Source of the DNA: an uncultured Cohaesibacter sp.
GTDB lineage: Bacteria; Pseudomonadota; Alphaproteobacteria; Rhizobiales; Cohaesibacteraceae
Length of the DNA: 64,000 nt
Reading direction: 5' to 3'
Assembly (NCBI RefSeq): GCF_963677725.1
Contig: NZ_OY782507.1
Location: 2,666,001-2,730,000 of the forward strand
Shown: piece after piece, positions 1 through 12,155 of the stretch
Layout: each line of letters begins with the position of its first letter
Numbering within the stretch: position 1 is the stretch's first letter
Made by a program: the position numbers and the translations under genes
The notes under the pieces: generated by a model
The model's input: only the letters and a program-made list of their open reading frames with translations
Databases searched by the model: none
Told to the model about the DNA's origin: nothing

Positions 1-475
1 CCTGTTCTCCAACCCGGGCCATATAGCGTCCAACCTGCTCAGGACTCAGAGGCCGCATGGTCAGGGTGGCAGTGGAGACGTGACGCCACAATGTTTCCCC
101 ATCTTTCACACAGGCCACTGCCGAATGGAGCTGATGGCTTTTACCCGCCATTTCAAGAAGTTGGGCACGGGCTGCAGCATCATTTTCCGGTTTGTTAAAT
201 CGCTTCTCGCCAATGCCGAGCGTCTGATCCGCCCCGATGACCAAAGCACCGGGATTGCGGCTCGACACATCCATCGCCTTCACCTCGGCAAGCAATTCGC
301 CAATGTCCTGAGCGCTGCCACCGGCCTCGATAAGAGGTTGTTCGGCGGCCCGTTCGTCAATCTGAGCGGTCTCACACGCAAAAGTCAGGCCAGCATTGGA
401 CAAAAGGGTGGCCCGGGACTGGCTTTTGGAGGCCAGAATCAAAGGAGGCATCGAATTGGTCAAAAGGGTGGTCAT
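1..475 (-). CDS. maf: Maf family nucleotide pyrophosphatase (3' end outside window)
   Basis: Maf proteins hydrolyse non-canonical or ordinary nucleoside triphosphates to monophosphates and are linked to septum control and nucleotide-pool cleaning. About 158 residues are visible, read leftwards and still open at base 1. The N-terminal LILASKSQSR matches the family signature (LASxSxxR), and GADQTL is the conserved substrate loop. The first ATG is at 475-473; an in-frame ATG lies at codon 9 and neither has a strong ribosome-binding site. In many Rhizobiales a pyruvate-phosphate-dikinase regulator (DUF299) sits between maf and hemE. Here maf is separated from hemE only by the candidate origin. 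Family assignment is firm; substrate is not known. Confidence 0.9.
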   Translation of the reverse strand, partial: MTTLLTNSMPPLILASKSQSRATLLSNAGLTFACETAQIDERAAEQPLIEAGGSAQDIGELLAEVKAMDVSSRNPGALVIGADQTLGIGEKRFNKPENDAAARAQLLEMAGKSHQLHSAVACVKDGETLWRHVSTATLTMRPLSPEQVGRYMARVGEQ

Positions 476-649
476 CAAAGGGATCCCGTATGTGAAAAGC
501 ACTTTATCACTTTTTAGAGCAAAGAAAGCGGAAGGGAAACTGTTGATGAGGGCTGGACTCGTGGATTCTTCTCACAGATTCAAAAGGATCAATTTGTTTC
601 AAAATCGAACGATCTGCCTTATCGGCTCTGGTTATCAACGGCGCGAAAA

Positions 650-664
650 TTAACGGTTGGTTAA
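650..664. promoter_or_regulatory. CtrA-type box 1 (TTAACGGTTGGTTAA)
   Basis: Exact TTAA-N7-TTAA in the candidate origin. CtrA, the alphaproteobacterial cell-cycle regulator, binds this spacing and represses initiation in Caulobacter. Binding here is inferred. Confidence 0.6.
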
Positions 665-962
665 GAGTGATTCTGTGCAGATTCTGCTTGCCAGCTTCTG
701 CCAAAATCGCACTTTTTGCGGCTCTGGGTGGGTTATGCCCAAGGCTCAAAAGTGCGGGATAAGGATTTCTACAATCAGATTTTCGGGCTGATTTCTGTCA
801 CTTTTTTGTCGTGATTGGGTGGTATGTTTGAGTTCGGTGGCTGATTCTTCCCCAAGCCGAATGGGCCTCAGGGGACAAAGTTGGGTGAATCCGGCGTTTT
901 AAGTTTTTCTTCACTTTTCCCAAAGCGCCATCCCCAAATGCATTTGCGCAGCGTCGCTTTCG

Positions 963-977
963 TTAACCATGTATTAA
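963..977. promoter_or_regulatory. CtrA-type box 2 (TTAACCATGTATTAA)
   Basis: Exact TTAA-N7-TTAA whose left half, TTAACCAT, matches the strongest Caulobacter CtrA half-site. It lies six bases from box 3, so the two could bind cooperatively. Confidence 0.7.
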
Positions 978-983
978 CTTAGG

Positions 984-998
984 TTAACAAACAATTAA
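984..998. promoter_or_regulatory. CtrA-type box 3 (TTAACAAACAATTAA)
   Basis: Third exact TTAA-N7-TTAA, in the most AT-rich part of the gap and overlapping the DnaA-like 9-mer at 996-1004. Competition between CtrA and DnaA at such overlaps is known from Caulobacter Cori; here it is inferred. Confidence 0.65.
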
Positions 999-1284
999 TA
1001 CACAAAGTGCGCAAAATTCGTTACCAGTTAATCCTCGCATAATTCAGTTTTGACATTGCTCCAGCTTTCTGGATTCCTTGGTCAAAATCTACTTTTCCCC
1101 GCTGTTCAATTTGCGGATAGAGGAGACTATGCCGAAATGGGAGAGGGTTTTCCAAGCGATCTGTGACTCAATTGTGGGCGAAAAAGATATCCCGCAATCC
1201 ACTGCCAATAAGAAGAAACAAATCTTAGAATCTAAGAATCTTTTTATAGGAAAAGCCGATTGAAAATGCTCAGATGAGATCCGG

Positions 1285-4635: not shown

Positions 4636-5979
4636 ATGACACGTGATACCATCTTCGCTCTTTCCAGTGGCGCAGTTCCGGCAGGGGTTGCGGTTGTCCG
4701 TATTTCTGGACCAAGAGCGCGGGAGGTTATGAATTGCCTTGTCGATTCGGAACCGAAATCCCGCTTTGCAGCGCTGCGTTATATCACCAATCCGCATACG
4801 GGGGATGTGATCGATCAGGCTCTGGTTCTGTTTTTCCCCGGCGATAAGTCCTTTACGGGCGAAGAAGTGGTTGAGTTTCAGCTGCATGGGGGGAGGGCGA
4901 TCGTCAAAGCCATGCTGGATTTGCTCGGTTCGTTTGATCAATGCCGGATGGCGGAGGCAGGGGAATTTGCCCGCAGGGCGTTTGTGAATGGCAAGTTCGA
5001 TTTGACCGAGATTGAAGGCTTGGCCGACTTGATCTATGCGGAAACCGAGAATCAACGCAAACAGGCCATGCGTCAGGCAAGCGGGGCCCATCGCAGTGTG
5101 ATTGAAGGATGGCGCGAAACCCTGCTTTATGCGCGCAGCATGATTGAGGCGGAGTTGGATTTTTCCGACGAGGAAGATGTTCCAGGTGCCGTGTCTGATG
5201 TCATCTGGCCAAAATTACAAAAGCTGAAGGCCGAGATGGAACATCATCTGGCCAATGCGCATCGCGGTGAACGTCTGCGCGACGGTCTTACCGTGGTGTT
5301 GGCAGGTCATCCCAATGCGGGAAAATCATCTTTGCTCAACTGGTTCGCCAAGAGGGATGTGGCTATCGTCACCGAAGAAGCGGGCACAACGCGGGATTTG
5401 CTCGAATTGCATCTGGATATTGAAGGCTATCCCGTAACTTTGATCGACACGGCGGGATTGCGCGAATCAGACAATATTGTCGAGCGAGAAGGCATTCGTC
5501 GGGCGCTTGAACGCAGTGAGTATGCGGATCTGTTGATTGAAGTGGTCGATGCAAGCATTCCCGATGCGCGGGTTTCACTCAGTAGCCATGCTGAGCGAAT
5601 GATCCTGTTCAACAAACAGGATCGGATAGCGGATGCCCGCTCTGATCCGCAAGTGCCGGCAAGAGGCGAGGAAAATGCCTATTTTGTGTCGGTTAAGAGC
5701 GGCATAGGAATGGATTTCTTTTACGATTCGTTTGTGAAACAAATCGCAGATTTGTTTGATGGAGCGGAAAATATCCTAATCACTCGTAAACGCCATGAGG
5801 CATATTTGCGAGTCTGTGTGGATAATGTGGAAAAATCTCTTATCTACTCAGATTCACCACTCGAAATTCGATCTGAATATTTGCGTATGGCTGGGGATGA
5901 GCTGGGGAAAATCACTGGAAGAATTGACGTCGAAGATATGCTTGGCGTGATTTTTTCACAATTCTGTGTGGGTAAATAG
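4636..5979 (+). CDS. mnmE: tRNA modification GTPase MnmE
   Basis: MnmE works with MnmG to install carboxymethylaminomethyl (or aminomethyl) groups on U34 of tRNAs reading NNA/NNG codons. The 447-residue protein has the N-terminal folate-binding domain (MTRDTIFALSSGAVPAGVAV), an inserted G domain with G1 GHPNAGKSS near 224, GTTRD, and DTAGL near 271, and the essential C-terminal C-x-G-K (CVGK, 444-447). Length is normal. mnmG follows after a gap rich in parS sites, so the two partners are neighbours but probably not on one simple transcript. Confidence 0.97.
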   Translation: MTRDTIFALSSGAVPAGVAVVRISGPRAREVMNCLVDSEPKSRFAALRYITNPHTGDVIDQALVLFFPGDKSFTGEEVVEFQLHGGRAIVKAMLDLLGSFDQCRMAEAGEFARRAFVNGKFDLTEIEGLADLIYAETENQRKQAMRQASGAHRSVIEGWRETLLYARSMIEAELDFSDEEDVPGAVSDVIWPKLQKLKAEMEHHLANAHRGERLRDGLTVVLAGHPNAGKSSLLNWFAKRDVAIVTEEAGTTRDLLELHLDIEGYPVTLIDTAGLRESDNIVEREGIRRALERSEYADLLIEVVDASIPDARVSLSSHAERMILFNKQDRIADARSDPQVPARGEENAYFVSVKSGIGMDFFYDSFVKQIADLFDGAENILITRKRHEAYLRVCVDNVEKSLIYSDSPLEIRSEYLRMAGDELGKITGRIDVEDMLGVIFSQFCVGK

Positions 5980-5984
5980 TGGAT

Positions 5985-6000
5985 CGTTTCACGTGAAACA
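5985..6000. other. parS site 1 (CGTTTCACGTGAAACA)
   Basis: Matches the universal ParB target TGTTTCACGTGAAACA at 15 of 16 bases and has a fully symmetric core. It starts six bases after the mnmE stop codon. It is the only one of the six sites without a GANTC sequence. Confidence 0.9.
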
Positions 6001-6026
6001 GGTCGACTTGGATTTTTAATTGACAG

Positions 6027-6042
6027 TGTTTCACGTGAATCT
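6027..6042. other. parS site 2 (TGTTTCACGTGAATCT)
   Basis: Matches the universal parS at 14 of 16 bases. The right half reads GAATC instead of GAAAC, creating a GANTC methylation site. Confidence 0.85.
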
Positions 6043-6072
6043 TGGATTTTGCCGTTTTCTGCCTCCTGAGTC

Positions 6073-6088
6073 GGTTTCACGTGAATCT
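6073..6088. other. parS site 3 (GGTTTCACGTGAATCT)
   Basis: Same asymmetric core GTTTCACGTGAATC as sites 2, 4 and 5; this 16-mer is identical to the site inside rsmG. Confidence 0.85.
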
Positions 6089-6121
6089 GTCGATGTAACT
6101 TTTTTGAAATAAAGCTGGCAG

Positions 6122-6137
6122 CGTTTCACGTGAATCC
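6122..6137. other. parS site 4 (CGTTTCACGTGAATCC)
   Basis: Fourth copy in the mnmE-mnmG gap, again with a GAATC right half. Start-to-start spacings across the four sites are 42, 46 and 49 bases. Confidence 0.85.
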
Positions 6138-6356
6138 TGTATAAGGGCTTTAACAAAATTGGGTGTTCCAAGACTACCGGATTTTGGCTCTCCGTGGCGG
6201 TTGGTGCCTGATTGGGAGCTACTGTTTCCGGTGCGCTCAACTATATAGGGTGGAGTGTTAAAGAATCTCCTAACCTTCATGGAATGCATGCTTTATCGGA
6301 GTTTGATCCAAACAGGATGCGGCTCTCCGATTTTGATCTAGGGAAATGTGAGAAGA
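6138..6356. other. Remainder of mnmE-mnmG gap
   Basis: No gene is seen here. Together with the four parS sites the gap is 377 bases. It must carry the promoter for mnmG-rsmG-parA-parB, but no clear -35/-10 pair could be assigned. Confidence 0.5.
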
Positions 6357-8207
<1,851 letters not shown>

Positions 8208-8217
8208 GAGGGCGTAA

Positions 8218-8898
8218 ATGACGGATATGGCAAAGAGCGACGAACAACAAGGCCAGGCGTTGATATCGGACATTCTGTCGGTTTCACGTGAATCTTTCCA
8301 CAAGCTGGGGATATATGTCTCGCTTGTGCGGAAATGGCAGCCGGCGCAAAATCTCGTTGCGCCAAAGACACTTGGCGAGATCTGGGTTCGTCATGTCGCC
8401 GATAGTGCACAGATATTCGCAAATTATCCCCAAGCCCGCCACTGGGTGGATATGGGGTCCGGGGCTGGATTTCCAGGCTTGGTTACGGCCATTTTGCTCG
8501 ACGATCTTGGTGAAGACTATTCCGTCCAAATGATCGAGAGCAATGGGCGCAAGGCGGCTTTTCTGCGCACAGTGGCGCGGGAATTGTCGCTCAATGTTAC
8601 GGTTCACAATGATCGAATCGAAAACGTTCTGGATGGGTGGGACAAGCCGATTGATGCCTTCAGTGCCCGCGCGCTGACGTCCTTCTCTAATTTGTGCGCC
8701 TTTGTCCGTCCTTATTTGTCGGAAGGATGTGTTGGCGTTTTCCACAAAGGGCGGGACTTCGAGCGGGAATTGGAAGAGGTCAGTGTCGACTGGGACGTAG
8801 ATCTGATACAAAAAACGAGCAGAACGGATCCGGATGCGCGGATCGTCATTCTGCAAAATTTGTCATCCAAAACGCATAGTGACGCAGATGCAAAGTGA
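8218..8898 (+). CDS. rsmG: 16S rRNA (guanine527-N7)-methyltransferase RsmG (GidB)
   Basis: RsmG methylates G527 of 16S rRNA using S-adenosylmethionine; its loss gives low-level streptomycin resistance in other bacteria. The 226-residue protein has the SAM-binding loop VDMGSGAGFPGLV near residue 77 and the family's FSARAL segment. The ATG at 8218 follows GAGAGGG in the short gap after mnmG. Codons for residues 21-26 (S-V-S-R-E-S) also spell a parS site at 8280-8295, so this stretch is probably under double constraint. parA follows after 9 bases. Confidence 0.96.
   Translation: MTDMAKSDEQQGQALISDILSVSRESFHKLGIYVSLVRKWQPAQNLVAPKTLGEIWVRHVADSAQIFANYPQARHWVDMGSGAGFPGLVTAILLDDLGEDYSVQMIESNGRKAAFLRTVARELSLNVTVHNDRIENVLDGWDKPIDAFSARALTSFSNLCAFVRPYLSEGCVGVFHKGRDFERELEEVSVDWDVDLIQKTSRTDPDARIVILQNLSSKTHSDADAK
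8280..8295. other. parS site 5 inside rsmG (GGTTTCACGTGAATCT)
   Basis: Intragenic copy, identical in all 16 bases to site 3 and carrying GAATC. It lies about 630 bases upstream of parA. Confidence 0.85.
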
Positions 8899-8907
8899 GG
8901 CTACTTT

Positions 8908-9738
8908 ATGAGTTCACTGCCGGAATCTCCTCGCGTTCTGACCCTTGCCAATCAGAAGGGCGGTGTTGGGAAAACCACGACAGCCATCAATCTTGGAACC
9001 GCATTGGCGGCGATTGGCGAGACTGTTCTCATTGTTGACGTTGATCCGCAAGGCAACGCCAGCACCGGCCTCGGCATTGATCGTCAGGCGCGTAGCGTCT
9101 CTACCGCCGAGTTGCTGTTGAATGAAGCGACTCTGTTGGAAGCTGCCATACCGACCGCGGTGCCGCGTTTGTCGGTTGCTGCCTCGACAATGGATCTGCT
9201 CGGTCTGGAACAGGAGATTTCCGGTTCCAGTGATCGCGCCTTCCGACTGCGCAAGGTATTGCAAAAACACGGAGAATTGGGCGATCAGATTCCGGAAGAC
9301 AAGCGCTTTACCTACGTGTTGATCGATTGCCCACCATCCCTGAACCTTCTGACCATTAACGCGATGGCTGCAGCCCATTCCATTCTGGTGCCGCTGCAAT
9401 GCGAGTTTTTTGCCTTGGAAGGTTTGACCCAGTTGATTCAGACGGTCAATCAGGTGAAGGGGGCGCTCAATCCTGATCTGTCTATTCATGGCATCGTGAT
9501 GACCATGTATGATAGCCGCAACAATCTGTCGAATCAGGTTGTCGAGGATGTGCGTGAGCATATGGGTGACAAGGTGTATGACACCATTATCCCGCGGAAC
9601 GTTCGGGTGTCCGAGGCCCCATCCTACGGCAAGCCGGCTTTGCTTTATGATTTGAAATGCTCCGGCAGTCAGGCTTATCTCAAGCTGGCTTCGGAGATCA
9701 TTCAGCGCGAGAAAAAACTGCGCAACAAGGCGGCCTGA
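8908..9738 (+). CDS. parA: Chromosome partitioning ATPase ParA (Soj)
   Basis: ParA binds DNA non-specifically in its ATP dimer form and moves the ParB-parS complex. The 276-residue protein has the deviant Walker A motif (KGGVGKTTTA starting at residue 17), the DVDPQGNAST Walker A' segment and VLIDCPPSLNLL Walker B. It lacks the N-terminal helix-turn-helix of plasmid type Ia ParA, so it is a chromosomal Soj-type protein. It sits between rsmG and parB, next to the candidate origin and parS cluster. Confidence 0.97.
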   Translation: MSSLPESPRVLTLANQKGGVGKTTTAINLGTALAAIGETVLIVDVDPQGNASTGLGIDRQARSVSTAELLLNEATLLEAAIPTAVPRLSVAASTMDLLGLEQEISGSSDRAFRLRKVLQKHGELGDQIPEDKRFTYVLIDCPPSLNLLTINAMAAAHSILVPLQCEFFALEGLTQLIQTVNQVKGALNPDLSIHGIVMTMYDSRNNLSNQVVEDVREHMGDKVYDTIIPRNVRVSEAPSYGKPALLYDLKCSGSQAYLKLASEIIQREKKLRNKAA

Positions 9739-9805
9739 GGCGGTCGCCCATTTTGGTGGAAGAAGGGTCCGGGACGGGTCAGAGGTCAGTTGACGCCCGG
9801 CGGGA

Positions 9806-10690
9806 ATGCGGAACATGGCAAAAAAACCTACTGAGGGAAAACGATTGGGGCGCGGACTTGCTGCTTTGATCGGAGATATGGACAATGAAGTGCAGGCGGT
9901 GGAGCGAGCTCGTTCACAGCGTCGCATTCCGATCGAATTTTTGCGCCCAAATCCGCGCAACCCCCGCAAAGACTTTATTGAAAACGATCTTGAAGACCTG
10001 ACAAAATCGGTGAAGGAAAAAGGCATCATGCAGCCGCTTCTTTGCCGTCCGGTGGCAGGAGAACAGGATTCCTTCGAAATCATTGCTGGAGAGCGTCGCT
10101 GGCGTGCGGCACAGGCGGCGGGTTTGCATGAGTTGCCCGTGCTCATTCACGATGTGAATGACAAAGAAGCTCTTGAGCTGGCGATCATCGAAAACGTGCA
10201 GCGGTCTGACCTCAACGCGCTTGAAGAGGCACTTGGCTATGACCAGTTGATCGAAGAGTTCGATTATACCCAGGCGGAGCTGGCCGATGTGATCGGCAAG
10301 AGCCGTTCCCATGTTGCCAATACGTTGCGTCTTTTGAAACTGCCCGAAAGCATCAAGGAATATCTGAAAAAAGGTGAGCTGACCGCCGGGCATGCCCGGG
10401 CGCTGATCACGGCTGAAAATCCTGAAGATCTGGCCCGCCGTATTGTTGAAGACGGGATGACTGTACGCGACGCTGAGAAAGCCGGACAGGAAAAGACAAA
10501 GGACAAGAAAGAGCCCAAGCCGAAAAAGGAAAAAGACGCGGACACGGTGGCGCTTGAAAAACGTCTCACGGATCGTCTGGGCTGGAATGTGTTCATCGCA
10601 CCGAAGAAAAAAGGTGGCGAATTGAAGATCCAGTATAAGTCGCTCGAACAGTTGGATGCGATTATCGAGATTCTTGAGAAAAGCAACTGA
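9806..10690 (+). CDS. parB: ParB/Spo0J partition protein (parS-binding CTPase)
   Basis: ParB binds parS, spreads along DNA as a CTP-gated clamp and loads SMC. The 294-residue protein has the N-terminal ParA-interacting motif (GRGLAALIG), the CTP-binding GERRWRAAQ near residue 95, ENVQRSDLNALEEA near 129, a helix-turn-helix (DVIGKSRSHVANTLRLL) that reads parS, a charged linker (KTKDKKEPKPKKEKD) and a C-terminal dimerisation domain. Starts at 9806 or 9815 (MAKKPTEGK) are both possible. Because five of six nearby parS sites carry a GAATC variant, the DNA-reading residues of this protein merit comparison with orthologues. Confidence 0.97.
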   Translation: MRNMAKKPTEGKRLGRGLAALIGDMDNEVQAVERARSQRRIPIEFLRPNPRNPRKDFIENDLEDLTKSVKEKGIMQPLLCRPVAGEQDSFEIIAGERRWRAAQAAGLHELPVLIHDVNDKEALELAIIENVQRSDLNALEEALGYDQLIEEFDYTQAELADVIGKSRSHVANTLRLLKLPESIKEYLKKGELTAGHARALITAENPEDLARRIVEDGMTVRDAEKAGQEKTKDKKEPKPKKEKDADTVALEKRLTDRLGWNVFIAPKKKGGELKIQYKSLEQLDAIIEILEKSN

Positions 10691-10717
10691 ATCGGTTCCG
10701 AATGGAACAGTGTAAGG

Positions 10718-10741
10718 GGGAGCCAATGGCTCCCTTTTTTT
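10718..10741 (+). terminator. Intrinsic terminator after parB
   Basis: Perfect stem GGGAGCC-aat-GGCTCCC followed by seven T. It ends the mnmG-rsmG-parA-parB transcript before the convergent transporter gene. Confidence 0.92.
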
Positions 10742-10778
10742 GTGCTTGGCTGCGGGCCTTGCACAAGAAAACCTTTAG

Positions 10779-12014
10779 TCAGGCTTGATTCGGTGTCGAA
10801 ACGGCGCGCAAAAGCGGGACAAGGCTGAGCAATGTGATGCATGCGGCCAGCCCGAAGGCCCCGGCGGGGAGATAATAAGGCGTTCCTTCGTGCGTGAAGA
10901 AGGCAAAGGCCTGTGTCATGACCAGAGGACTGAGGATGGTGGTGATGGCCATCAGTGAGGATATCGCGCCTTGCAATTCCCCTTGGGCATCTTCGGGCAC
11001 TCGGTTTGCCATAAGGCTTTGCATGGCGGGAATTGCTACGCCTTCGAGCGCGCTGATGGGAAGGAAGAGAAACAGGAGCCAGCCTTTGGTGATGAACACG
11101 ATCCCGATCAGCGTTGTGGCCTGAAAGAGCGTGCCGATCAGCACGATGGTCTTTTCGCTAAAATGTCTAAGGAGCAGGGGAACGAGAAACATCAGGGTCA
11201 GGGCATGAAAGAGGCCATAGATGCCCAGTGACAGGCCGATCTCGCGGCTGCTCCAGGAGAAGGCTTCCCGCGTGTAATAGGACCAGATCGAAGGATAAAT
11301 CCAGCCGGCGATGTTAAAAAGCAGGAAGGCCGCAAAGAACCACAACAGGCCCGGGATATGGCTTGCCTGAAGAAGCGCTCCGGCAGGATTGCTTCTTGCC
11401 CATGAAAAGGCGCGCCTTTTGTCCGGCGGCAGGCTTTCTGGCAGGACGACAAGACCATAGAGCCCATTGAGTGCAACCAATCCAGCGGCAAAGAAAAATG
11501 GCGCGCGGGTTCCAAACTCGCCAATGAGGCCGCCAATCAACGGACCAGCGATGAAGCCAAAGCCGAAAGCGGCGTTGACGAGACCAAAGTTGCGGGTTCG
11601 ATCCTCAGGCTTTGAGACATCCGCAACATAGGCAAAAGCGGTGGCATGGGTTGCGCCTGCAATCCCGGCAATGAATCGACCCACGCCAAGTAACCAGAGG
11701 CTCGGTGCGAGGCCCATAATCAAATAGTCGATGGCAAGTGCGGCAAGAGAGAAGAGCAAAACCGGGCGCCTGCCGAAACGATCGGAGAGATTGCCGAGTG
11801 TCGGGCCGCATAAAAACTGCATGAATGCGTATACAAACCCAAGATATCCGCCAAAAATCGCTGCCTGGCTGATGCTGGCGGAGGAAAGCTCCTGAATGAG
11901 ATCCGGCATGACAGGCATAATGATGCCGATGCCCATGGCATCCAGAAAGACCGTAATGAAGGCAAAGCGAGCGGAATGCCCTTGAGAGGTCGCAGTTGAT
12001 ATGGGGTGCTGCAT
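10779..12014 (-). CDS. MFS drug/metabolite efflux transporter, TetA-like
   Basis: A 411-residue major facilitator with about 12 membrane segments. The loop 2-3 motif GNLSDRFGRRPVL is the MFS motif A, and the segment GRFIAGIAGATHATAFAYVADV resembles motif C of the TetA/TCR drug:H+ antiporter branch. That suggests export of a drug or small organic compound across the inner membrane; the substrate is unknown. It reads leftwards after holA across a 175-base gap that holds parS site 6, so it probably has its own promoter. No adjacent TetR repressor is present, so a dedicated tetracycline system is unlikely. Confidence 0.85.
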   Translation of the reverse strand: MQHPISTATSQGHSARFAFITVFLDAMGIGIIMPVMPDLIQELSSASISQAAIFGGYLGFVYAFMQFLCGPTLGNLSDRFGRRPVLLFSLAALAIDYLIMGLAPSLWLLGVGRFIAGIAGATHATAFAYVADVSKPEDRTRNFGLVNAAFGFGFIAGPLIGGLIGEFGTRAPFFFAAGLVALNGLYGLVVLPESLPPDKRRAFSWARSNPAGALLQASHIPGLLWFFAAFLLFNIAGWIYPSIWSYYTREAFSWSSREIGLSLGIYGLFHALTLMFLVPLLLRHFSEKTIVLIGTLFQATTLIGIVFITKGWLLFLFLPISALEGVAIPAMQSLMANRVPEDAQGELQGAISSLMAITTILSPLVMTQAFAFFTHEGTPYYLPAGAFGLAACITLLSLVPLLRAVSTPNQA

Positions 12015-12139
12015 GGAAATGCCCGGCGTCGAATGGAATCATTTGGCCCGCAATATAGTGGCTTGGGGGATGATTGTCGCCGGAAATGGCATCTTTAAGC
12101 AAGACGTTGATTTTCCAAAGAGTCTCGTTGTTCCGCGAC

Positions 12140-12155
12140 TGATTCACGTGAAACG
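12140..12155. other. parS site 6, inverted orientation (TGATTCACGTGAAACG)
   Basis: Reverse complement of the GTTTCACGTGAATC variant, in the gap between holA and the transporter gene. It extends the parS cluster to about 6.2 kb, spanning parA and parB. Confidence 0.8.

What the first reader, a model, noticed from the sequence alone, without database searches (positions are those of the whole stretch)
5985..12155. Five of six parS sites carry a GANTC (CcrM) methylation site inside the ParB target
Sequence: six copies of the TCACGTGA core lie at 5985, 6027, 6073, 6122, 8280 and 12140. Only the first is the symmetric GTTTCACGTGAAAC. The other five (the last inverted) share GTTTCACGTGAATC, so one base change turns GAAAC into GAATC, a GANTC site. 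Knowledge: CcrM methylates GANTC late in the alphaproteobacterial cell cycle, and newly replicated parS would be hemimethylated. Inference: ParB loading could be sensitive to methylation state, tying segregation to replication timing. The same variant in five dispersed copies argues against random drift.
Basis: partly seen in the sequence, partly recalled or inferred. Interest (0 to 1): 0.75.

Follow-up and report, generated by a model that had tools for sequence, protein, structure and literature searches.

The report
Centromere sites carrying a methylation mark
In an order of bacteria that includes many plant symbionts, many of the DNA sites used to pull copied chromosomes apart also contain the target of a cell-cycle DNA-methylating enzyme, in just one half of the site, which hints that chromosome segregation may read methylation state.

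Summary
Five are GTTTCACGTGAATC; another lies 2.5 kb outside the window. The genome (nearest named: Cohaesibacter) has one perfect site, six GAATC sites and a CcrM. This is not drift: in 11 loci of the genus the three intergenic GAATC sites keep the variant T in 33 of 33 instances, with flanks 34-53% identical. It is not class-wide: perfect palindromes dominate in other CcrM+ Alphaproteobacteria. It recurs across Hyphomicrobiales: 170 of 332 parS sites in 72 loci carry GANTC in one half, none in both (22-30 expected). The letters follow GANTC: two-change variants keeping it (30) outnumber one-change variants at the same position without it (5). ParB residues that contact DNA are the same with and without the trait. 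Most likely, selection turned a subset of parS into joint ParB/CcrM sites; that methylation alters ParB loading is inferred, not shown. Against: four sampled families with CcrM but no GAATC parS, and occasional GAATC parS outside the class. My searches of an open-licence library found no report of GANTC inside the chromosomal parS core.

The parts
5986..5999 (.). parS 1, perfect palindrome GTTTCACGTGAAAC, just after the mnmE stop; no GANTC
   Evidence: perfect in all 11 loci of the genus compared, own included
6028..6041 (+). parS 2, GTTTCACGTGAATC; GAATC at 6037-6041
   Evidence: variant T kept in 11 of 11 loci of the genus
6074..6087 (+). parS 3, GTTTCACGTGAATC; GAATC at 6083-6087; a further GANTC (GAGTC) at 6068-6072, one base before the site
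6123..6136 (+). parS 4, GTTTCACGTGAATC; GAATC at 6132-6136
8281..8294 (+). parS 5, GTTTCACGTGAATC inside rsmG, in frame (GTT TCA CGT GAA TCt = V-S-R-E-S); GAATC at 8290-8294
   Evidence: GAATC in 8 and perfect in 3 of the 11 loci of the genus
12141..12154 (-). parS 6, GATTCACGTGAAAC (GAATC type, inverted); GATTC at 12141-12145
8908..9738 (+). parA
   Evidence: Pfam AAA_31 and CbiA
9806..10690 (+). parB
   Evidence: Pfam ParB_N, HTH_ParB, ParB_C; contact residues invariant or nearly so in 23 ParBs
8218..8898 (+). rsmG (gidB)
   Evidence: Pfam GidB
6348..8207 (+). mnmG (gidA); ORF from 6348, ATG at 6357
   Evidence: Pfam GIDA for 6357-8207; ORF
4636..5979 (+). mnmE; parS 1-4 lie in the mnmE-mnmG gap
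   Evidence: Pfam MnmE_helical and TrmE_N

Best explanation
A subset of the chromosomal parS sites has been converted into joint ParB/CcrM sites: one half keeps the canonical GTTTCAC and the other is changed so that it reads GA(A/G)TC, a CcrM target, while at least one site usually stays a perfect, methylation-blind parS. I propose that adenine methylation at base pairs 2 and 4 of the changed half lowers ParB nucleation there. Origin-proximal parS would then be weak while fully methylated, change state as soon as the fork passes and makes them hemimethylated, and be reset late in the cycle when CcrM returns. Shown: the sites, their conservation, the preference for the GANTC letters, the one-half rule, CcrM in the genome, unchanged ParB contact residues. 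Inferred: that the sites are methylated in the cell, that methylation changes ParB loading, and in which direction.
For: (1) Selected, not drifting: 33 of 33 intergenic GAATC sites in 11 loci of the genus keep the T and their orientation, with flanks 34-53% identical. Neutral exchange with the perfect form is disfavoured (about 8e-4 with the flank tree, about 3e-7 with the fourfold-site tree; my arithmetic). (2) The letters are GANTC: in 297 genomes of the order, 385 GAATC sites in 139 genomes, 54 genera and 24 families against 27 AAGC and 6 AACC. At position 12, 30 variants completing GANTC (28 GAGTC, 1 GATTC, 1 GACTC; two changes) against 5 without it (4 GAGAC, 1 GACAC; one change); 12 genera against 4 (my count). 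In 170 changed halves only the N position varies (14 of 170), never base 1 or 4 (base 5 was fixed by the scan). (3) One half only: exact double GATTCACGTGAATC in 0 of 297 genomes, and 0 of 332 sites against 22-30 expected (sites with over two mismatches not seen). (4) A separate named set: 37 of 42 non-perfect parS in 31 Hyphomicrobiales loci are GANTC, against 0 of 10 in 49 other loci. (5) The eight residues matching the Caulobacter ParB contacts (PMC7383237, passages) are invariant, or in one case nearly so, in lineages with and without GANTC parS. (6) CcrM in the genome. In Ensifer, SMRT data show GANTC passing from fully to hemimethylated as replication proceeds (PMC8725594, passages).
Against: CcrM does not entail the trait: all 46 tested genomes of the order match the RAMA profile (45 over its cut-off), among them seven (G168, G170, G172, G181, G187, G188, G292) with no GAATC in the genome and no GANTC parS in the stretch read. 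Other CcrM+ orders rarely have it. GAATC-type parS occur outside the class: 7 of 22 matching sites in 213 genomes, two confirmed beside mnmE/mnmG or between parA and parB, so ParB can tolerate this half elsewhere; whether those genomes have a GANTC methylase was not tested. [quoted passage not shown] whether those GANTCs lie inside parS cores is not stated in the passages I saw. I found no methylation or binding data for these sites.
Confidence: 0.48

Rival explanations
1. ParB-only explanation: GATTCAC is a tolerated, weaker half-site. Selection keeps a mix of strong (perfect) and weak or oriented (one changed half) nucleation sites, and the GANTC is incidental.
For: GAATC parS occur in genomes outside the class. 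The one-half rule fits a half that costs affinity. The variant is absent from many CcrM+ genomes.
Against: Other weak halves should serve as well. The non-canonical half most used outside the order (GTTC, 35 of 54) is nearly absent here (5 of 191), and AAGC plus AACC are about 12 times rarer than AATC. Changed halves vary only at N among the bases free to vary in the scan. ParB contact residues are the same.
Confidence: 0.24
2. Transcription: the GANTC serves a CcrM/GcrA- or MucR-controlled promoter of mnmG-rsmG-parAB and merely overlaps parS.
For: Four sites lie in the gap upstream of the operon; GANTC is 2.7-fold enriched within 30 bp of parS compared with the loci as a whole; CcrM promotes repABC expression in Agrobacterium (PMC11514494, abstract).
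Against: 0 of 170 sites fit the extended GcrA motif YGAKTCK (motif from PMC8725594, which adds that the motif can differ between species). 85 of 170 GANTC parS lie elsewhere, at the rsmG 5' end, upstream or downstream. The flank enrichment is the same beside perfect sites. MucR was not tested.
Confidence: 0.12
3. The GANTC inside parS is read by something other than ParB: it is part of a general GANTC enrichment of the origin region (hemimethylation timing of oriC, or ParB shielding sites from CcrM).
For: GANTC counts are 55 in the first 13.5 kb and 70 in the other 50.5 kb of the window, with a cluster before hemE; four distant 6-kb samples have 0.67-1.83 per kb.
Against: Does not explain why the motif is built into the 14-bp ParB site at the cost of one half-site rather than beside it.
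Confidence: 0.11
4. Inheritance of a chance variant (drift or duplication of one site).
For: Sites within a genus are inherited; the MnmG tree needs at least 9 changes of the trait over 71 rows, so many rows share it by descent.
Against: Flanks of the sites are unlike one another and have diverged while the variant T is fixed; the same variant recurs in 24 families of the order.
Confidence: 0.03

Closest known systems
Chromosomal ParABS centromere, parS of Caulobacter / Bacillus type (GTTTCACGTGAAAC)
   Same: Same 14-bp core, same place (mnmE-mnmG gap, rsmG, beside parAB), ParB with the usual domains and the same contact residues.
   Different: One half-site reads GA(A/G)TC, a CcrM target, in 170 of 332 sites of the order's loci.
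CcrM/GANTC epigenetic control (Caulobacter ftsZ, mipZ; Agrobacterium repABC)
   Same: The same kind of methyltransferase (RAMA-domain CcrM) and motif; expected to be hemimethylated after the fork passes (PMC8725594, PMC11514494, passages; ftsZ and mipZ from the abstract start of PMC3708114, listing).
   Different: The motif lies inside a centromere site rather than a promoter, and does not fit the extended GcrA form.
repABC parS regions rich in GANTC (Paracoccus pAMI4, PMC9040568)
   Different: A different centromere family, and the GANTCs are near parS, not described as inside it in the passages seen.
Dam/SeqA sequestration of E. coli oriC (from knowledge)
   Same: Would work alike: a replication-generated hemimethylated state of an origin-proximal site read by a binding protein.
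   Different: Different enzyme, motif and reader; here segregation rather than initiation. No SeqA search was made.

Membership tests
Chromosomal ParABS / parS | ParB with ParB_N, HTH_ParB and C-terminal dimerisation domain next to parA | tested here: met
   parA 8908-9738, parB 9806-10690
Chromosomal ParABS / parS | Near-palindromic GTTTCACGTGAAAC sites clustered near parAB and the origin | tested here: met
   the 7 genome sites span 14.6 kb around parAB; 0 of 100 shuffles reach six sites in the window. The origin itself was not located.
Chromosomal ParABS / parS | ParB residues that contact parS (Q162, G170, K171, S172, R173, N178, G201, R204 in Caulobacter) | tested here: met
   A1 columns Q156, K165, S166, R167, N172, G195, R198 invariant and G164 nearly so, matched by a constant offset of 6 (residues from PMC7383237; the matching is mine)
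Chromosomal ParABS / parS | ParB binds and spreads from the sites | not testable with these tools
   needs ChIP-seq or in vitro loading
CcrM-controlled GANTC site | CcrM (N6_N4_Mtase + RAMA) in the genome | tested here: met
   (395 aa)
CcrM-controlled GANTC site | Selection keeps the GANTC letters | tested here: met
CcrM-controlled GANTC site | Presence follows CcrM across lineages | tested here: inconclusive
   46 of 46 tested genomes of the order match RAMA, so no CcrM-free contrast; class sample 6 of 182 sites in RAMA+ and 1 of 52 in RAMA- loci
CcrM-controlled GANTC site | Adenines are methylated, and hemimethylated after replication | not testable with these tools
   no methylome of this organism held
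GcrA-dependent methylated promoter | Extended YGAKTCK motif over the GANTC | tested here: not met
   0 of 170 sites
Noc binding site (NBS) | Bases 1 and 6 of the half-site changed from parS | tested here: not met
   bases 1 (G) and 6 (A) are as in parS (positions from PMC7383237)

The most novel reading that the evidence does not exclude
Because the GANTC occupies only one half of an otherwise palindromic centromere site, replication leaves the two sisters chemically different: one keeps the methyl at base pair 2 of the ParB half-site, the other at base pair 4. With clustered sites all facing one way (0+++ in the 13 Cohaesibacter loci; ---0 or the like in Mesorhizobium and relatives), a whole cluster would carry one mark or the other. 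ParB could then tell the sisters apart and decide which origin stays at the old pole. The one-half rule (no exact double in 297 genomes) is what such a scheme needs. The +- clusters of family f151 and the mixed one of an f180 genome argue against its being universal.
Probability: 0.07. Interest if true: 0.95.

Novelty: new variant of a known kind. Interest (0 to 1): 0.7.

Why it matters
How segregation is timed relative to replication and division is an open question in Alphaproteobacteria. A centromere site that is also a CcrM site is a direct molecular link between the replication fork, the late CcrM pulse and ParB. It makes precise predictions at single bases (GAATC against GAAAC) in tractable symbionts such as Mesorhizobium. 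The contrast between lineages with and without it in the loci read (Cohaesibacter and Mesorhizobium against Bradyrhizobium and Methylobacterium) gives built-in controls.

Tried and rejected
Class-wide trait: rejected. In 120 loci of the class sample, RAMA+ loci (91; 81 with sites) hold 182 parS sites: 160 perfect, 5 GAATC and 1 GATT type with a second change. RAMA- loci (29; 23 with sites) hold 52: 40 perfect, 1 GAATC. Some RAMA- genomes are incomplete. Of the 142 genomes, 122 matched RsmG; the own genome was fetched apart, one weak match (G081) and the second match of G158 were not fetched, and 20 genomes had no match.

ParB specificity change: rejected as the cause; contact residues are the same in lineages with and without the variant.

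Neutral toleration: considered because a neutral two-state site would be singly changed about two-thirds of the time (my reasoning), so frequency alone (6 of 7) is not evidence. Rejected on the fixation of the T amid diverged flanks. Flanks were compared ungapped, so their divergence is overstated to some degree. 11 of the 13 genomes of the genus were fetched.

GcrA promoter motif: 0 of 170. Association with CcrM loss inside the order: not testable, since 46 of 46 tested genomes match RAMA (46 of the order's 297, chosen by me across families). Flanking GANTC enrichment: present but the same at perfect sites, so no support for either side.

Caveats on counts: genomes within genera are related. 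In one search the GATTC of G016 lies on another contig than its rsmG and may be chance. The GAGTC of G532 has none of five par-region genes within the 4-kb stretch read. The trait labels of the tree count only the stretch held: G210 is labelled without, though one search finds two GAATC elsewhere in it. The 31 named loci were assigned to Hyphomicrobiales by me from their titles, and the 168 loci outside include at least one that is not alphaproteobacterial (Aliidiomarina).
Full report
What is there. The window is 64 kb of a 4.63-Mb single-contig genome. Its ParB is nearest, among the named records returned, to Cohaesibacter celericrescens (89%; Hyphomicrobiales), with a second Cohaesibacter record at 85%. 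The gene order is hemE, a small ORF, rho, mnmE, four parS, mnmG, rsmG with parS 5, parA, parB, an MFS gene, parS 6, holA-like (rho, and the name holA for the DNA_pol3_delta match, are my reading). Sites start at 5986, 6028, 6074, 6123, 8281 and 12141; the first is perfect, the rest are GTTTCACGTGAATC, the last inverted. A further GAATC site lies 2467 bp before the window, and the genome-wide count within one mismatch is 7. CcrM (395 aa, N6_N4_Mtase plus RAMA) is present.

Conservation in the genus. I compared 11 loci of the genus, own included. The site after the mnmE stop is perfect in all 11; the next three are GAATC, same orientation, in 33 of 33; the rsmG site is GAATC in 8 and perfect in 3. 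Core identity is 1.00, while 12-bp flanks of the three GAATC sites are 0.34-0.53 identical. Flank tree length is 4.3 substitutions per site, and 9.0 at fourfold sites of mnmG. If perfect and GAATC forms were interchangeable, about 4.3 T-to-A changes at the three sites and 2.9 gains at the first would be expected with the shorter length; none is seen (probability about 8e-4, about 3e-7 with the longer; my arithmetic, Jukes-Cantor rates, ungapped flanks). So the T is maintained.

Distribution. In a sample across the class (120 loci, one of them of the own order) perfect sites dominate in RAMA+ and RAMA- loci alike (160 of 182; 40 of 52). In the own order, GAATC occurs in 139 of 297 genomes, 54 of 122 genera, 385 sites in 24 families (from the table). 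A separate named set gives the same picture: 31 Hyphomicrobiales loci have 123 sites (81 perfect, 28 GAATC, 9 GAGTC, 5 other); 49 other loci have 96 (86 perfect, no GANTC, 10 other). On a MnmG tree of 71 rows the trait changes 9 times at least. Bradyrhizobium, Methylobacterium and Methylocystis records have only perfect sites in the loci read; Cohaesibacter, Mesorhizobium, Rhizobium, Bartonella, Brucella gallinifaecis and Pseudovibrio records carry GANTC sites.

The letters under selection. Position 13 is T far more than G or C: 385 against 27 AAGC and 6 AACC. The exact double GATTCACGTGAATC is in 0 of 297 genomes. At position 12, 35 sites depart from A: 28 GAGTC, 1 GATTC and 1 GACTC complete GANTC and need two changes; 4 GAGAC and 1 GACAC do not and need one (12 genera against 4, my count). 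In 72 loci of the order (332 sites; 148 perfect) 170 half-sites are GATT (156) or GACT (14). No changed half also departs at base 1 or base 4, although ATTT (base 1, 7 halves) and GTTC (base 4, 5 here, 35 outside the order) are the commonest other halves; base 5 could not vary, because the scan fixed CACGTG, and sites with over two mismatches were not seen. 0 sites have both halves changed where 22 (pooled) or 30 (per locus) are expected. Outside the order, 168 loci give 327 sites with 5 GATT among 54 non-canonical halves, the commonest being GTTC with 35. The pattern is what selection for GANTC in one half, with ParB needing the other, would give.

Why not ParB alone. The eight residues contacting parS in Caulobacter (PMC7383237, passages) are invariant, or nearly so for one, in 23 ParBs from lineages with and without GANTC parS. 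If a weak site were all that was wanted, GTTC, AAGC or AACC halves would do. Yet the ParB-only view is not dead: outside the class, 7 of 22 matching sites in 213 genomes are GAATC (none GAGTC; the reversed control scores 8 there). Of four of these seven that I fetched, two are plainly parS, one in the mnmE-mnmG gap and one between parA and parB; the other two show no par-region gene in the short stretch read. Whether those genomes have a GANTC methylase was not tested.

Why CcrM is not sufficient. All 46 order genomes tested match RAMA, 45 over its cut-off, including seven with no GAATC site in the genome and no GANTC parS in the stretch read. Five of the seven belong to families f154, f156, f167 and f173, in which no genome sampled has a GAATC site; the other two belong to f158 and f174, in which a few genomes do. 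So CcrM allows the trait but does not require it.

Mechanism. In the changed half, read inwards, G1-A2-T3-T4-C5, CcrM would methylate A2 and the adenine opposite T4, in the major groove that the ParB helix-turn-helix reads (groove from PMC7383237, passages; positions deduced). Origin-proximal GANTCs are expected to become hemimethylated early and stay so until CcrM acts late (Ensifer SMRT data, PMC8725594, passages; late CcrM action also PMC11514494, passages). A ParB sensitive to this mark would load differently on newly replicated parS than on resting ones, while the perfect site kept at the cluster edge would load always. The direction (methylation weakens binding) is my guess. [quoted passage not shown] Caulobacter is not in the order with this trait.

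Architecture. In the mnmE-mnmG gap the arrangement is 0+++ in the 13 Cohaesibacter loci (11 unnamed, 2 named) and ---0, --0 or -0 in Mesorhizobium, a Rhizobiaceae bin, Brucella gallinifaecis and Bartonella: in both, the canonical half faces the perfect site and the GANTC half points away. Family f151 (+-) and one f180 genome (++++-) differ, and f6 and one f170 genome have same-way sites with no perfect site in the gap. GANTC and perfect counts by place are 85:64 in the gap, 13:48 at the rsmG 5' end, 50:19 upstream, 22:15 downstream and 0:2 in mnmG. The rsmG site is probably held back by coding, since GAATC turns VSRET into VSRES (inference).

Known or new. Searches for the strings of the variant found no paper. 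Searches joining parS, ParB, GANTC, CcrM, hemimethylation, adenine methylation or half-site specificity gave, in the listings and passages I saw, GANTC near repABC parS (PMC9040568) and CcrM control of repABC (PMC11514494), but no GANTC inside the chromosomal parS core. The library holds open-licence papers only, so this is not proof of absence from print.

Verdict. The finding is real, underestimated in extent within its order and overestimated in generality across the class. The evolutionary case for a selected GANTC inside parS is strong (I would put it near 0.8); the case for methylation-sensitive ParB loading is plausible and untested (0.48).

Noticed in passing
window 436-1284: The stretch before hemE holds twelve GANTC (436-1236) and TTAA-N7-TTAA (CtrA-like) motifs at 650, 963 and 984, but no TTWTNCACA DnaA box before 5817: a candidate oriC of the Caulobacter hemE-linked kind (the comparison with Caulobacter is recalled).
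   Followed up: partly
window 1-64000: GANTC counts are 55 in the first 13.5 kb and 70 in the other 50.5 kb; 1.95 per kb overall against 3.8 expected from base composition; 0.67-1.83 per kb in four distant 6-kb stretches.
   Followed up: partly
L128-L138, L177, L202, L152, L153, L181, L185, L192, L194, L203 (mnmE-mnmG gap): GANTC halves in a cluster point one way, away from the perfect site, with mirror-image arrangements in Cohaesibacter (0+++) and Mesorhizobium-like loci (---0 or --0).
   Followed up: partly
L183 4485-8483: A Rhizobiales MAG locus with twelve perfect parS sites in about 4 kb, more than any other locus listed.
   Followed up: no
L135, L137, L138, about 5.7 kb before rsmG: A conserved site ATTTCACGTGAATC with one half GANTC and the other changed at base 1; possibly a weak parS.
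   Followed up: no
L172 2246, L175 2272: GAATC-type parS in genomes of other classes of the phylum, in the mnmE-mnmG gap and between parA and parB.
   Followed up: partly
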